A stretch of DNA of 64,000 nucleotides from Acytostelium subglobosum LB1 (lineage: Eukaryota > Evosea > Eumycetozoa > Acytosteliales > Acytosteliaceae). The DNA lies in assembly GCF_000787575.1 (NCBI RefSeq), contig NW_012236499.1, positions 62,001 through 126,000 of the forward strand, read 5' to 3'. The position numbers and the translations under genes were made by a program. Positions 57,920 through 63,844 of the stretch are shown piece after piece. Positions within the stretch are counted from its first letter, which is position 1. Each line of letters begins with the position of its first letter. Below the pieces are notes generated by a model. It saw nothing but the letters and a program-made list of their open reading frames with translations. It had not been told where the DNA came from and did not search any database.

Positions 57920-60900
57920 ATGACTTCGAAGGGATCAACATTGGAATCCATTCATGATATCATAAAATGCTCCATCTGTCTTAACTCTGCGGAGAACCCT
58001 CGGTTCTGCCCCGTTTGCTCCGCCCTCTTCTGCATGCATTGCATCAATGTATGTACACCTTACATCCTTGTTGCCCTCTCCATCTCTCTCGCTTGACTAA
58101 CACACAGAGCCATCCATCATCAATCTTAGAAATGGATACAACACAATCCTACATGCCCTGCATGCAGAGGAAAATTGAACCACGATAACCTGAGCTCTAA
58201 TCTTATCGTTGCCAACATCCTCAATGTATGTTACACATCACTCATTCATTCATTCATTCATTCGATCACTCACTCATTCATTCAATCACATGATCAATCG
58301 TATCACAGGAGCTTACAAAGTCACAGGAGTATCTTCAACCGGATCATTGCACTTCACATCACTTTGACATGATATACTATTGCAACAATTGTCAAGAGTC
58401 GATATGTCCAGATTGTTATCTCTTCCAACACAAGGATCACTCAATCGAGAAGGTCTCAGTAATCTACAACAAGAACTTGGAGATAATAAGAGTCGAGGAA
58501 GAAGCACTCAAGTGAGTACTCAGGTCATTCATTCATTCATTCGTTCATTCACTGACTCGTTCAATCAAACATATATTTAGGAAGAGACAAGAGGAACTAC
58601 ATGAGCTATCATCCTTTATCGACTCTGACACCAATCAACTATATCAGAACAAGAGAGAGATTGAAGATGTCATTGATAATGTAGTAGGTGACATGAAGAC
58701 CAGACTAAACAATGAGTTTGAACAAAAGTATTCAATCATATCAAGTAAGTGTCTTACACGAATGAATGAATGAATGAATGATTGAGTTAATGACGCTAAC
58801 GCTAACGCATGCACATCATCAGGTTCACAACAGAGATTGAATGGAGAGTTGACACATATGGATGATATGTATGAACAGTTGATCAGTCATTATAAGAAGT
58901 CCCCGGGCGACTTTATACAGTCGAGCGTTCAGTTGACAAAGAACTTGCAAGAGGTGCACAAGAACTCGATACTGGAGATATACAAGCCGGTCAACACGGA
59001 TTTGACGTCAGAGATAGCGCCACCATTTGAGCATCGTCTGCTCAAACTCAACGGCTTCCTCCAGGCGCCAAAGCCATTCGCCAATCGCATCGAGTATTAT
59101 GGCACGACTTGGGAGCTGACGTGTGGCGTCGACGACGACAACCTGTTCATCAATCTGAAGCTGCTCGACACGCCCGTCGAGGCCAAGTACACGTACAGGT
59201 TCACGATCATCAATCAAAAGTCCAGCCACAACAAAGTGTACGAGTCGTCGTTCCCCCTGCACATCGGCAAGTCGTTGCTCATCCCCAACTACTCGACGAA
59301 GGATCTGCTGATCGAGGATGGCTACCTGCTGCCCGAGAAGGACATCCTGCTGCTGCAGTTCTCGTTCAAGCCGCTCAACTTTTGTCACCTGACCAACGAC
59401 CTCAAGTACTACATCACAATGTTGGAGACACAGAACAGCATGCTGCGCAGACATCAGCAGCACTCTCATTCACACTCGCACTTCTCTGGAGGTGGCAGTG
59501 GCAGTAGCAGCAGGCTGGCGAGCTCTTACGATGTGGACCGATCGCCTGGCGTCATCACTGACGAAGAGTACTTTGGCGACGATGAGAAGGAGTCTGCGCC
59601 CAAGCCTCAGCGTCCAGCCAAGCGATCCAGACGCAGTCCTACCGCATCACTCTATCTCAATTTAAAGTATAGTGAGGATGATGACTTTGATGACTTTGAC
59701 GAGGAACAGGCTGTTGATCAGATTGATGATGACCATGATGATGATGACGACGACGATGATGAGGATGACGATGAGTCGTCCACTTCATCTTCCTCATACT
59801 CTGATGATCAACAACAATCAATCTCTGGCACAGAGAGCGAGGAGTTGAACGTCAAGCCCACCTACTCATACAAGTCAGTCTATGGCTACAAGCGTACAGG
59901 CATCAGCAGTAGTGGTGGCAGCAGTGGCGGTAACAAGAGTAGCAGCAACAGCATTGGCAACAGCATTGGCAACAGCATTAGCAACAGCATTAGCAATAGT
60001 AGTAGCAGTAGTATAATCAACTCCAATCATCTAGACCTTGTAAATAGTAGTTGTCAAATAGATCTAGACAGTATAGACATAATCAACAATATCAATGGCG
60101 GTAATAACAACAACAGCAACAATAGTAGTGGCGGTGGCAATGGCGATGGCAATGACGACAGCGACATTCTAAACAATGACAGTATAGCTTCACAATGGGA
60201 CCTACAGTCCCAATTCAACTCCTTAAACCTAGGGTATGTATATCATCACTATCACTCAATCACAATCAATCAAACATCTGACTCACTCAATCAATCAATT
60301 AGCGGAAAGTGGCGGTATGATTACCACAGACACAACAACAACAACAACAATGAGAGTAGCGATAACAACAACAACAATAATAATAGTAGCAGGAGCAAGT
60401 TCAACTATCTATCAGAGATTGACGATAGCATTCGCATCCTGGACCAGTCTCATGAGAACACTGAGAACGAGATGGGCTATGAGGAGATGGAACCGATTCC
60501 ACCAATCATCATACCGCCCACCTCTCCCATCACCAAGACCAAGACATCTACCTCGCGAGCACCAAGATTACCACCTCGTCCACAACTTCTCACCTCTGCC
60601 AACATCGATGATCAAGTGGATGATGTAGAGGAAGACAACAACGACCAAGATGAGGACGAGGATGATGAAGATGATCAAGGAGATGACGAGATGCCTGACC
60701 ACTATGATGTATCGAACGAAGAAGTGGACAATGAGGATGATAACGATGATGATGAACAACAGAGTCACAGTGACAATGCGGACCAGGATGAGGATGATGA
60801 AGAGATAATCTATAGCGAAGACAACACTCATGAAGATTATGATATTGAACCATTCGACTCTGACGTTGAGTTCCAACCGTATAATGAGGACGAAGAGATA

Positions 60901-61107
60901 TACATCGATCCTACACATCTATCAATATTCAATGTCAGTCCTACACTTGTTGGACACTTCAAACAGCAGAGCAGTGGCAGTGGTAGTAGTAACTCACCAC
61001 CATCATCATCAGCACCACCTCAACTCAATCATTCCTCAACCTTCCCGTCCACCATTCCTTCCATCCCCTCCTCCCCTTCTTCCTCCAACTTGTCTCATCA
61101 CGTCTGA
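57920..61107 (+). CDS. TRIM37-type RING/B-box/coiled-coil/MATH E3 ubiquitin ligase
   Basis: Six exons, 57920..58048, 58130..58225, 58309..58511, 58581..58744, 58823..60233 and 60303..61107, give 935 residues. A RING finger (IIKCSICLNSAENPRFCPVC, then CMHCINKWIQHNPTCPACRG) spans residues 14-60. A B-box (CTSHHFDMIYYCNNCQESIC) and a coiled coil follow. The MATH domain lies at about 282-400 (YTYRFTIINQKSSHNK...ITMLETQ). The order and the linker between coiled coil and MATH (LQEVHKN...DLTSEIAPPF) closely match animal TRIM37, a ubiquitin ligase acting in chromatin and centrosome control. The remaining half is acidic Asp/Glu, Ser and Asn low complexity. The last intron is 69 nt, a multiple of three with no in-frame stop, so its retention gives 958 residues. 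Confidence 0.9.
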
Positions 61108-61270
61108 AGTCAGATGTGCTCTACCTCCTCCTCTTCCTTCCTTTTTTTTCCAACCTCACTCAATCAATCAATCAACTTACATACATAACAACACCAATTC
61201 ATTCAATAAATGATGATGTCTTTTTTATTTATTTAGATTATTATTATTCAATCAATTAGATCAGACTTTT
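61108..61270. other. Three-prime flank of the TRIM37-like gene
   Basis: AATAAA at 61205-61210 and TTTTTT/TATTTATTTA tracts suit 3' end formation. No other feature seen. Confidence 0.5.
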
Positions 61271-61309
61271 AACCCATAAATCAAAATTGAAACCAAAAAT
61301 CGAGATATA
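61271..61309 (+). promoter_or_regulatory. Candidate external Pol III promoter of tRNA-Sec
   Basis: AACCCATAAA at 61271-61280 lies about 60 bp before the mature tRNA start. As I recall, it matches the Dictyostelium upstream sequence element (DUSE, core CCCATAA) found before snRNA and class I RNA genes. GATATA at 61304-61309 lies about 30 bp before the start, the place of a TATA box. Vertebrate tRNA-Sec genes also use a PSE plus TATA. The assignment is by position and motif only. Confidence 0.5.
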
Positions 61310-61337
61310 CAATTGTGATTGGTGGGAGTGTGTGATT

Positions 61338-61424
61338 GCTGGGATGATCTACCATGGGTGGTGGCTAAGACTTCAAATCTTAGGCTCCCGAGAGGGAGAG
61401 GGGTTCGATTCCTCCTTTCTAGCG
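61338..61424 (+). tRNA. tRNA-Sec: Selenocysteine tRNA, anticodon TCA
   Basis: 87 nt that fold as a eukaryotic tRNA-Sec. The acceptor pairs nt 1-9 with 78-86, with two G-U pairs and the U-U mismatch also found in human tRNA-Sec. The D arm has a 6-bp stem (12-17/22-27) and a 4-nt loop. The anticodon stem is 6 bp with loop CTTCAAA and TCA at 61373-61375. The long variable arm is CTCCC-GAGA-GGGAG. The T arm has a 4-bp stem (GGGG/CCTC) and loop TTCGATT, and the discriminator is G. The 9+4 acceptor/T-stem layout and 6-bp D stem separate it from serine tRNAs. It is charged with Ser and converted to Sec through PSTK and SepSecS, and decodes UGA in selenoprotein mRNAs. A TTTT at about 61482 could terminate transcription. 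Confidence 0.94.
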
Positions 61425-61467
61425 TCAATCGTCGTCAAACGTAGGTGGGATTATTCCACCCTTTTAT

Positions 61468-63844
61468 TTATTTATATTGTCCCCAATCATCACGACCGAT
61501 TGGAAAACCTAGACTTGTTTGTTTCTCTCTTTGATGTTTTGAAAGGTTGTAGTCATATAGATGATGTTGTATATCTTTATGAATAATTGGTATTAGATCA
61601 TCCTTGATACGTTTACGATTATGTTCATCCAATTGATTGAGTAACCAATCGATCATCTTAGTTTGGTCGTGTCCATTTGTTTTTGCCAAGATCACAAGAT
61701 TATCTTTCCAACATGCCCTGACATTGTCACTACCTCTTCCATGTTTGGTATCAACAATCTTGAATATATACTCCAATAACTCCAAATTACCATTGATCAC
61801 TGTATTTTTGATTTGTATCCTTAACCTGATGAGTGATTGGCGTTCATTACCAACATGATGATGTGTATAATAATGTTTGATAAGATCAATCTGATTGCTC
61901 AATGAGGCTTGATTCAACATTGGACCAAACATTGTGTTGAGTTGACTTTTGGTCAATGGACAATGTGCCAATACATAGTCAAACATCTCTACACTTCCAA
62001 TGCAACCAATTGCTGACCACAATGTTCTTGTGCTAAAGTCTGCCAGATGATGCTGTTCCACCAACATCTCGATCACTCCATCGTGTGGTCCACCCTGCAT
62101 CATTGCGAAAGACAACAGTTCATTGCATATCTCTCTTGTAAAGCATTGTGGACGATGTTCCAACAACACCTCGATGACGCCCTGGTCACCTGTTGCCGCA
62201 GCCACAAATGCCAAGATGTCCACTGATGAATAACATATCATGTTTGGTTGTTTCCTAAGTACATGTTCCAACAGTGTTTGGACATTAAGAAGTCGAGAGC
62301 ATCAATCGATCCCTCAAACAAATTAGATGCGAGTATTTTGTTTGTGTTCAATTTTGGCCATGTTCATCAACTTGATCACATCCAGACTTGTATCGGGATC
62401 GTCTGATTCCAGGAAAGTCGTGTAGGGATCAGTCTCAATACAGTATTGAGATCTGAATTGTTGGAGGTCCAGGACAAACTCAGCCCGTGGCAAGCATTGG
62501 ATGGCCACCTTGGTCTGCATGATATTGCCATGTTTGATCAATGAGTCAAACAGGATACGAATATATAAACAGAAATATCCACGTGATGTTCTTCCATTGT
62601 TGTGAGGGAAGTCTTCATGTTTAGGTAGTACCTTCCACAAGGATGGGTCCATCAAGCATGATATAAGGACATAATCGCCGGTAGCAATATACTCTCGTAT
62701 ACATGTTGCCATGATAGAAGGCTGGCTACCCGATCCAGTATCCTCAGCCACCCCCTTGAGAAAGGCATGCATTACTGCGCGTCTTGTATGATCGTCCAAG
62801 ATGGAATGGTCAATGACATTGTTTGGACTAATTGCCTTGAGTGTCAACTCCCAAGTGATGGCCAACATATTTGTGATCCATTGATTGATTGATTATTATG
62901 TGGTATGATATTCCAGTGCATAAGACGCTCGATGTTGGCAAGGGGCCGGGTGAGAGGATGTGTTGGTGGAGTGTTCGTGTGAGTGCATGACGGACAGCCA
63001 GGACACTTAACATCATCATCTCCAAACAATCCATCAATGATAACTTGATCGCAATCAGATATGGAGGTTGTCTTTACGGGCATTGTATCTGACATCCTTA
63101 ATTAATTAATTCTGGGATATGTCCAAGTATGTAACGAAGGTTATCCCTGAGATGAGGTTCTCTCCATATTGTTCTGCAGTCTCTGATCATACTTGTTACT
63201 AAGTGTTCATTAGGTTATGATGACGATGATGGAGTCAACTGCAGCATGTCGGTGAGGTACCTTGCCATGGGGTAGCGACGATGATCAATGGCCAGCGTGA
63301 TCAATCTACTCATGTCGACTTTAAACTTGATGGGCTCTGTCTGGAACAACAATGTTTGAACGATGGCCATGTTGCCAGCGATCACTCCATTGTCAAGCAT
63401 TGAAGGGTGAGTAAAGTATTGTTTGAAAGATGCATAGAGTTGATTGAATGTGTTGGCGTCAAGATCACTCGACAAGCATATCATCCTGATTGCTTCAACA
63501 TTGATGTTGAGGTGGAGGCCTAGTTTGATGCGATCGCGCAGCAGACCAAAGTGTCGATGTTTGACGATGGCCTGAGCATCAGTCCAATGATGATACTTCG
63601 TTCGAAATAGAGGTAGTTTGGAGCATGTCCACTCCCATCCCTCCTTTTTGTTATGATCATGATCAGTTAAGAATGGAGGGTTGTTGGCCACATGATCAAA
63701 CATTGAGTACAACTCTGATGGTGATAATACTGAACCTGGAATACTTCGAGATAACCTTATTATCCTCTTTAACAAAGTCCTATTTATCAACACACTCTTT
63801 ACAATACATTGATCATTATGTGATATCTGAACATTCTGGACCAT
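61468..63844 (-). pseudogene. Decayed dictyostelid ankyrin-like repeat gene
   Basis: Minus-strand pieces in the same order as a large dictyostelid ankyrin-like family. The N-terminal piece, 63844..63215, contains VKSVLINRTLLKRIIRLSRS and GVIAGNMAIVQTLL. A middle piece starts at 63095, another covers 62868..62323, and the C-terminal piece, 62271..61468, contains DILAFVAAATGDQGVIEVLL. Breaks include an in-frame TAA at 63217-63215, after which the same frame continues for about 38 codons, and frame changes near 63100, 62325 and 62290. An intron begins GTTAAGT after GDDD, and its expected 3' end reads AAATATG instead of AG. A short frame between the last two pieces (ASNLFEGSIDALDFLMSK) is also family-like. 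Either this is a pseudogene or several sequencing indels are present. Two adjacent partial genes are less likely. Confidence 0.65.

What the first reader, a model, noticed from the sequence alone, without database searches (positions are those of the whole stretch)
61271..61424. tRNA-Sec gene with a PSE/TATA-like external promoter in an amoebozoan
The tRNA has every hallmark of eukaryotic tRNA-Sec, including the 6-bp D stem and 9+4 layout. About 60 and 30 bp upstream sit AACCCATAAA and GATATA, at the spacing used by vertebrate tRNA-Sec genes. If real, DUSE-driven type-3 Pol III transcription of tRNA-Sec would link the amoebozoan and animal modes of expression.
Basis: partly seen in the sequence, partly recalled or inferred. 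Interest (0 to 1): 0.75.

Follow-up and report, generated by a model that had tools for sequence, protein, structure and literature searches.

The report
tRNA-Sec gene with snRNA-type upstream promoter
In a social amoeba, the one selenocysteine-tRNA gene found carries, at the same distance upstream (within a base or two), the promoter element of the U6, SRP and class I RNA genes, which the 63 ordinary tRNA genes examined lack there; this suggests that it is switched on from outside the gene, as in animals.

Summary
The tRNA is real: 61338-61424 (+) is tRNA-Sec by ARAGORN and Rfam (68.2 bits); a DNA search found one copy in the 30.7 Mb genome. The upstream AACCCATAAA (61271-61280) is a dictyostelid DUSE. 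Its CCAT lies at -64, as in this genome's U6 and SRP RNA genes; in five class I RNA genes it lies at -64 or -63 (start choices uncertain by 1-2 nt). A matrix from those seven genes, without tRNA-Sec, scores the tRNA-Sec site above every other position in about 0.5 Mb. None of 63 listed tRNA genes has CCATAA near -64; 62 of 63 have an A box at position 8, tRNA-Sec does not. U2 carries the element at -56 in 2 of 4 copies. The genome encodes SNAPC3 and SepSecS. GATATA is present but not above chance. Best reading: DUSE/SNAPc-driven, type-3-like Pol III transcription starting at or near G1. No other dictyostelid genome could be searched and nothing was measured: conservation, polymerase and start are inferred. 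My searches found no DUSE-tRNA-Sec report, but the 2005 paper on D. discoideum tRNA-Sec was not seen.

The parts
61338..61424 (+). tRNA-Sec gene (anticodon TCA), including the discriminator base
   Evidence: ARAGORN; Rfam RF01852 68.2 bits (61338-61423); pairing; one copy found by DNA search
61271..61280 (+). DUSE (AACCCATAAA), CCAT at -64 from the tRNA 5' end
   Evidence: same place as in U6, SRP and class I genes; score reached by no other of 500,278 positions
61304..61309 (+). GATATA, possible TATA element at -34 to -29
   Evidence: not distinguishable from chance
61402..61412 (+). Intragenic B box GGTTCGATTCC
   Evidence: No full A-box match in the gene; a 7-letter partial match (TRGYNNA) lies at tRNA position 25, not at position 8, where 62 of 63 ordinary tRNA genes have it
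61462..61465 (+). First T4 run downstream, possible Pol III terminator, 37 nt after the tRNA
   Evidence: median distance in 28 ordinary tRNAs is 4 nt
61444..61460 (+). Small 7-bp hairpin just before the T4 run
   Evidence: z -1.54, 19 of 200 shuffles fold as well, so not significant

Best explanation
The tRNA-Sec gene belongs to this amoeba's DUSE class of small-RNA genes. The DUSE at -64 is bound by a SNAPc-like complex (inferred; a SNAPC3 homologue is encoded), which places TBP/TFIIIB at about -30 on AT-rich DNA and recruits RNA polymerase III to start at or next to G1 of the tRNA (inferred from the spacing shared with U6 and SRP RNA). The missing A box makes ordinary TFIIIC-led initiation unlikely; the intact B box may still help. 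Shown here: the gene, the element, its spacing, its absence at that place from the ordinary tRNA genes examined, the lack of an A box at position 8, SNAPC3. Inferred: bound factor, polymerase, start site.
For: CCAT at -64 in tRNA-Sec, U6, SRP RNA and class I copies 1, 3, 4; at -63 in class I copies 2 and 5. U6, SRP, U2, U5 and RNase P genes were found by RNA family, without regard to DUSE. Matrix from U6 + SRP + 5 class I: tRNA-Sec 19.35 against leave-one-out 4.2 to 18.6 for the training genes, and no other position of 500,278 reaches it; adding the two doubtful class I candidates leaves only tRNA-Sec and the U6 gene itself, a training gene, at or above the tRNA-Sec score in 494,152 positions. 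Ordinary tRNAs: 0 of 63 with CCATAA near -64 (two have it elsewhere in 130 bp, at -37 and -104); their best matrix score is 10.6, at -89. No A box at position 8, B box intact. Letters ATT|G around +1 in tRNA-Sec, U6 and SRP (noticed after the fact and dependent on my choice of U6 start). [quoted passage not shown] SNAPC3 present.
Against: TATA element not above chance. First T4 is 37 nt downstream and only four T long; median 4 nt in 28 ordinary tRNAs, though two of those lie at 30 and 40. [quoted passage not shown] discoideum (PMC7919456, passage), so DUSE alone does not fix the polymerase. Start points used for the comparison are uncertain: the U6 start I took is 1 nt after, and the class I starts (AAG/GAG) are 2 nt before, the Rfam model starts. 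The class I genes were first found with a pattern that asks for CCATAA, and the later DUSE-free pattern was derived from those hits. U5 (-61) and RNase P (-98), counted from the model starts, are not at -64. No other species compared. In D. discoideum the tRNA-Sec gene was in no nucleosome-free region at any stage analysed (PMC13063481, passages), which the authors read as repression.
Confidence: 0.8

Rival explanations
1. Hybrid promoter: TFIIIC bound at the intact B box does much of the work, and the DUSE sets the start site or adds strength. This overlaps with the best explanation and differs in weight.
For: B box GGTTCGATTCC is intact. AT-rich -30 sequence (TAAA in 26 of 63) is also found in front of ordinary tRNAs.
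Against: No A box at position 8, where 62 of 63 ordinary tRNA genes have one; the conserved T loop alone would preserve the B box.
Confidence: 0.3
2. RNA polymerase II transcribes the gene from a DUSE promoter of the U2 or U5 kind and the ends are trimmed.
For: DUSE is used by Pol II snRNA genes too (PMC7919456 passage; U2 and U5 here). The Pol III-like terminator is short and distant.
Against: Spacing equals U6, SRP and class I (-64/-63), not U2 (-56); the U6 and SRP genes and the five class I genes are followed by T4 to T13 runs. U5 at -61 from the model start is between the two.
Confidence: 0.08
3. The DUSE is a chance match and tRNA-Sec is an ordinary internal-promoter gene.
For: AACCCATAA..TATA combinations occur at 11 places in the genome with no enrichment over the reversed control; with U6 and SRP alone as training, 11 sites, tRNA-Sec and U6 itself among them, reach the tRNA-Sec score.
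Against: Position match; with seven training genes no other of 500,278 positions reaches the score.
Confidence: 0.04

Closest known systems
Vertebrate tRNA-Sec (TRNAU1) type-3 Pol III promoter (PSE + TATA, SNAPc, TFIIIB with Brf2)
   Same: External element some 50-70 bp upstream that is shared with U6; no standard A box, B box kept (vertebrate part recalled); a SNAPC3 homologue is encoded here
   Different: DUSE has its own sequence; TATA not established; Brf2 is reported only in vertebrates (PMC4671959, abstract and passages), so Brf1 would have to serve (inference); no DSE looked for
DUSE promoters of dictyostelid spliceosomal and class I RNA genes (PMC7919456, PMC3188802; passages)
   Same: Motif, orientation and distance, compared within this genome
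   Different: The product is a tRNA with an intact intragenic B box; possible terminator further away
Ordinary tRNA genes of this genome (type 2 promoter, A and B boxes)
   Same: Product is a tRNA; B box
   Different: No A box at position 8; DUSE upstream; longer distance to the first T4 than in 27 of 28 inspected

Membership tests
Eukaryotic tRNA-Sec | TCA anticodon, 6-bp D stem, 9+4 acceptor/T layout, long variable arm | tested here: met
   one U-U mismatch in the acceptor
Eukaryotic tRNA-Sec | Sec synthesis machinery in the same genome | tested here: met
   SepSecS PF05889, 430 bits, one open frame; SBP2, EFSec and PSTK not searched
DUSE gene class | DUSE about 60 bp upstream of the RNA start | tested here: met
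DUSE gene class | Transcription depends on the DUSE | not testable with these tools
   No expression data at hand
Type-3 Pol III promoter | PSE-like element upstream, shared with U6 | tested here: met
   Same motif and distance as U6
Type-3 Pol III promoter | TATA box near -30 | tested here: inconclusive
   GATATA present, not above chance
Type-3 Pol III promoter | SNAPc subunit encoded | tested here: met
   SNAPC3 PF12251 in three neighbouring stretches, best 7.4e-28; two of them read through one stop each, as a search that ignores introns may give. Other subunits not searched
Type-3 Pol III promoter | Pol III occupancy and start at +1 | not testable with these tools
   Needs experiment
Type-2 tRNA promoter | A box and B box inside the gene | tested here: not met
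   B box present, no full A-box match; only a partial 7-letter match at position 25
Conserved dictyostelid feature | Same element at the same spacing in other dictyostelid tRNA-Sec loci | not testable with these tools
   No dictyostelid genome but this one was at hand; for a scan of other collections

The most novel reading that the evidence does not exclude
tRNA-Sec has been under an snRNA-type, SNAPc-dependent external promoter since the common ancestor of Amoebozoa and animals, so that it travels with U6 and SRP RNA rather than with the other tRNAs; and in dictyostelids the choice of Pol II or Pol III is set by an 8-bp difference in DUSE-to-start spacing (-56 versus -64).
Probability: 0.3. 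Interest if true: 0.65.

Novelty: new member of a known kind. Interest (0 to 1): 0.48.

Why it matters
If it holds across dictyostelids, the external promoter of tRNA-Sec known from animals would also be found in Amoebozoa, and whether it is ancestral or arose twice could be tested. It would also offer another reading of why the D. discoideum tRNA-Sec gene was in no nucleosome-free region at any stage while most tRNA genes were (PMC13063481, passages): it may use another promoter class.

Tried and rejected
Cross-species test: the pattern CCATAA..CTTCAAA..B box was scanned in viral contigs (4 hits) and genome contigs (72 hits). I examined only the 4 viral hits: ARAGORN gives a tRNA in 1 of 4, L091, which Rfam calls an ordinary tRNA (RF00005, 7-bp acceptor); I take its similar spacing as coincidence. 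The 72 prokaryotic hits were not examined.

TATA matrix: no support for the GATATA. Hairpin before the T run: not significant. Pfam on three neighbouring frames: 0 families each.

Class I genes: the DUSE-free pattern gave 35 matches; 6 were already in fetched loci, 13 more were fetched, 16 were not looked at. Of the 19 looked at I took 7 as candidates. Five were used. L072 (cI_6) had no Rfam match at E up to 1 and was used in the matrix (tRNA-Sec 19.1) but not in that. L023 (at -66) was in neither, although its Rfam score (32.3 bits) is above that of L028, which I kept (30.0); putting both back leaves the result standing. Of the five used only cI_1 passes the Rfam cut-off of 41.5 (43 bits); the other four score 30.0 to 40.4. 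PMC7919456 predicts 18-39 class I genes per species, so I saw a part.

The background holds loci fetched because they carry DUSE-like patterns, which makes that test stricter; some of its loci overlap.

Papers: ten searches. DUSE together with tRNA-Sec was not found in print in this library. Shrimali 2005 (D. discoideum tRNA-Sec) was seen only as a reference; Aspegren 2004 and Hinas 2006 (DOIs recalled) are not held; so an earlier report is not excluded.

Full report
WHAT IS THERE. The stretch 61338-61424 on the + strand is a tRNA-Sec gene by two methods (ARAGORN; Rfam RF01852, 68.2 bits against a cut-off of 47). Checked pair by pair it has a 9-bp acceptor with one U-U mismatch, a 6-bp D stem, a 6-bp anticodon stem with TCA, a 5-bp variable arm and a 4-bp T stem. 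A search of the 30.7 Mb genome with 230 bases of this region found this copy only. The genome also encodes SepSecS in one open frame, so the tRNA has a use. Genome size (30.73 Mb) and base composition (window 41-52% GC by 4-kb stretch) fit Acytostelium subglobosum (30.9 Mb, 55.0% A+T; PMC4334915, passages); I take the species as probable, not proven.

THE UPSTREAM ELEMENT. AACCCATAAA lies at 61271-61280, with CCAT at -64 counted from the tRNA's first base. This fits the published DUSE, [AT]CCCA[AT]AA, said to sit about 63 bp upstream of many small-RNA genes of D. [quoted passage not shown] I asked where the element sits in other genes of the same genome. U6, U2, SRP RNA, RNase P and U5 genes were found by RNA family and so without regard to DUSE. 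Class I RNA genes were found first by a pattern that asks for CCATAA and again by a pattern of the RNA alone, derived from those hits, so they are not wholly independent. Five were used; one passes the Rfam RF01414 cut-off (43 bits) and four do not (30.0-40.4 bits).

SPACING. CCAT is at -64 in U6, SRP RNA and three class I genes and at -63 in the other two. tRNA-Sec is at -64. These numbers hang on where each RNA starts: I took U6 at GGCTCC, 1 nt after the Rfam start, and class I at AAG/GAG, as in PMC7919456, 2 nt before the Rfam start. U2 has it at -56 in two of four copies; the other two lack a clear DUSE. U5 has it at -61 in two of two, counted from the model start. RNase P has it at -98 from the model start; an extended P1 helix would put the 5' end about 33 nt further up and make the distance about 64-65, an after-the-fact inference. 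So tRNA-Sec groups with U6, SRP and class I rather than with U2. [quoted passage not shown]

CHANCE. A matrix over -68 to -51 from U6, SRP and the five class I genes, without tRNA-Sec, gives tRNA-Sec 19.35 bits; of 500,278 positions in the window and 57 loci, both strands, only tRNA-Sec itself reaches that. Some of these loci overlap, L020 holds the U6 gene, and many were fetched because they carry DUSE-like patterns. Leave-one-out scores of the training genes run from 4.2 to 18.6. Without aligning the two -63 genes, three positions reach the tRNA-Sec score, itself among them; with U6 and SRP alone, 11 do, among them tRNA-Sec and the U6 gene itself. With the two doubtful class I candidates added, only tRNA-Sec and the U6 gene itself do, of 494,152. 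Against this, the exact DUSE-TATA combination is not enriched in the genome (14 rows, 11 places, against 38 rows for the reversed pattern): only position makes the case.

ORDINARY tRNAs. The tRNA model listed 63 genes (a lower bound: 63 of 926 first-look candidates were scored); all 63 were read, with 61 distinct 60-bp upstream stretches. None has CCATAA near -64; two have it elsewhere in 130 bp (-37, -104). The best matrix score among them is 10.6, at -89. An A box (first seven letters, TRGYNNA) sits at position 8 in 62 of 63. tRNA-Sec has no full A-box match and a TRGYNNA only at position 25; its B box is perfect.

WHAT IS NOT SHOWN. GATATA at 61304-61309 is real, but on a matrix of the -36 to -25 stretch of eight DUSE candidates (one later dropped) it does no better than 47% of all positions, and TATA is found in 6.7% of AT-matched windows and in that stretch of 8 of 63 ordinary tRNAs. 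The first T4 run is 37 nt downstream, against a median of 4 nt for 28 ordinary tRNAs. U6 and SRP are followed by long T runs, class I copies 1 to 5 by runs of four or five T or more shortly after their ends.

MECHANISM. The most likely reading is a gene-external, SNAPc-dependent Pol III promoter: a SNAPC3 homologue is encoded, and tRNA-Sec, U6 and SRP share the -64 spacing and, with my U6 start, ATT|G around +1. Since Brf2 is reported only in vertebrates (PMC4671959, abstract and passages), Brf1 would be the partner here (inference). The B box may assist. Pol II transcription is less likely, because of the spacing.

COMPARISON WITH THE LITERATURE. Selenocysteine tRNA is listed among the RNAs with a type 3 promoter (PMC7279448, passage), and human TRNAU1 is occupied by SNAPc, BRF2 and Pol III (PMC3499247, passages). 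DUSE is established for dictyostelid small RNAs. I saw no paper joining the two, but the 2005 tRNA-Sec paper was not seen. In D. discoideum the only tRNA-Sec gene was outside nucleosome-free regions at all stages analysed (PMC13063481, passages), which fits a different promoter class as well as repression.

VERDICT. It is a new member of a known gene class, of moderate interest.

Noticed in passing
L051, L053, L054, L056, L057, L058 (tRNA loci): In 6 of 9 inspected copies of one tRNA gene (anticodon loop CTCTTAA, probably Lys) the 5' half of the gene is repeated upstream, once (4 copies) or twice (2 copies), at an exact 67-bp period; L050, L052 and L055 lack this.
   Followed up: partly
L010, 1390-1461 (-): A DUSE-like site precedes what looks like a C/D-box snoRNA; Rfam gives only a sub-threshold match to DdR12 (32.5 bits, cut-off 70, E 0.51).
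   Followed up: partly
L003 and L004 (contig C44): Two partly degenerate U6-like copies, below the Rfam cut-off, lie within 8 kb of the full U6 gene and share its 3' half and downstream sequence.
   Followed up: no
L070, L071: Two of four U2 genes lack a clear DUSE but keep TTTAAAG at about -30.
   Followed up: no
L091, 639-734: A viral contig carries a tRNA with TCA anticodon, possibly a UGA-reading tRNA.
   Followed up: no
window 61107-61468: The tRNA-Sec gene sits between the 3' ends of two open frames that face each other (58837-61107 + and 61468-62271 -), so no mRNA promoter is expected there; neither frame has a Pfam match, so that they are genes is unproven.
   Followed up: partly
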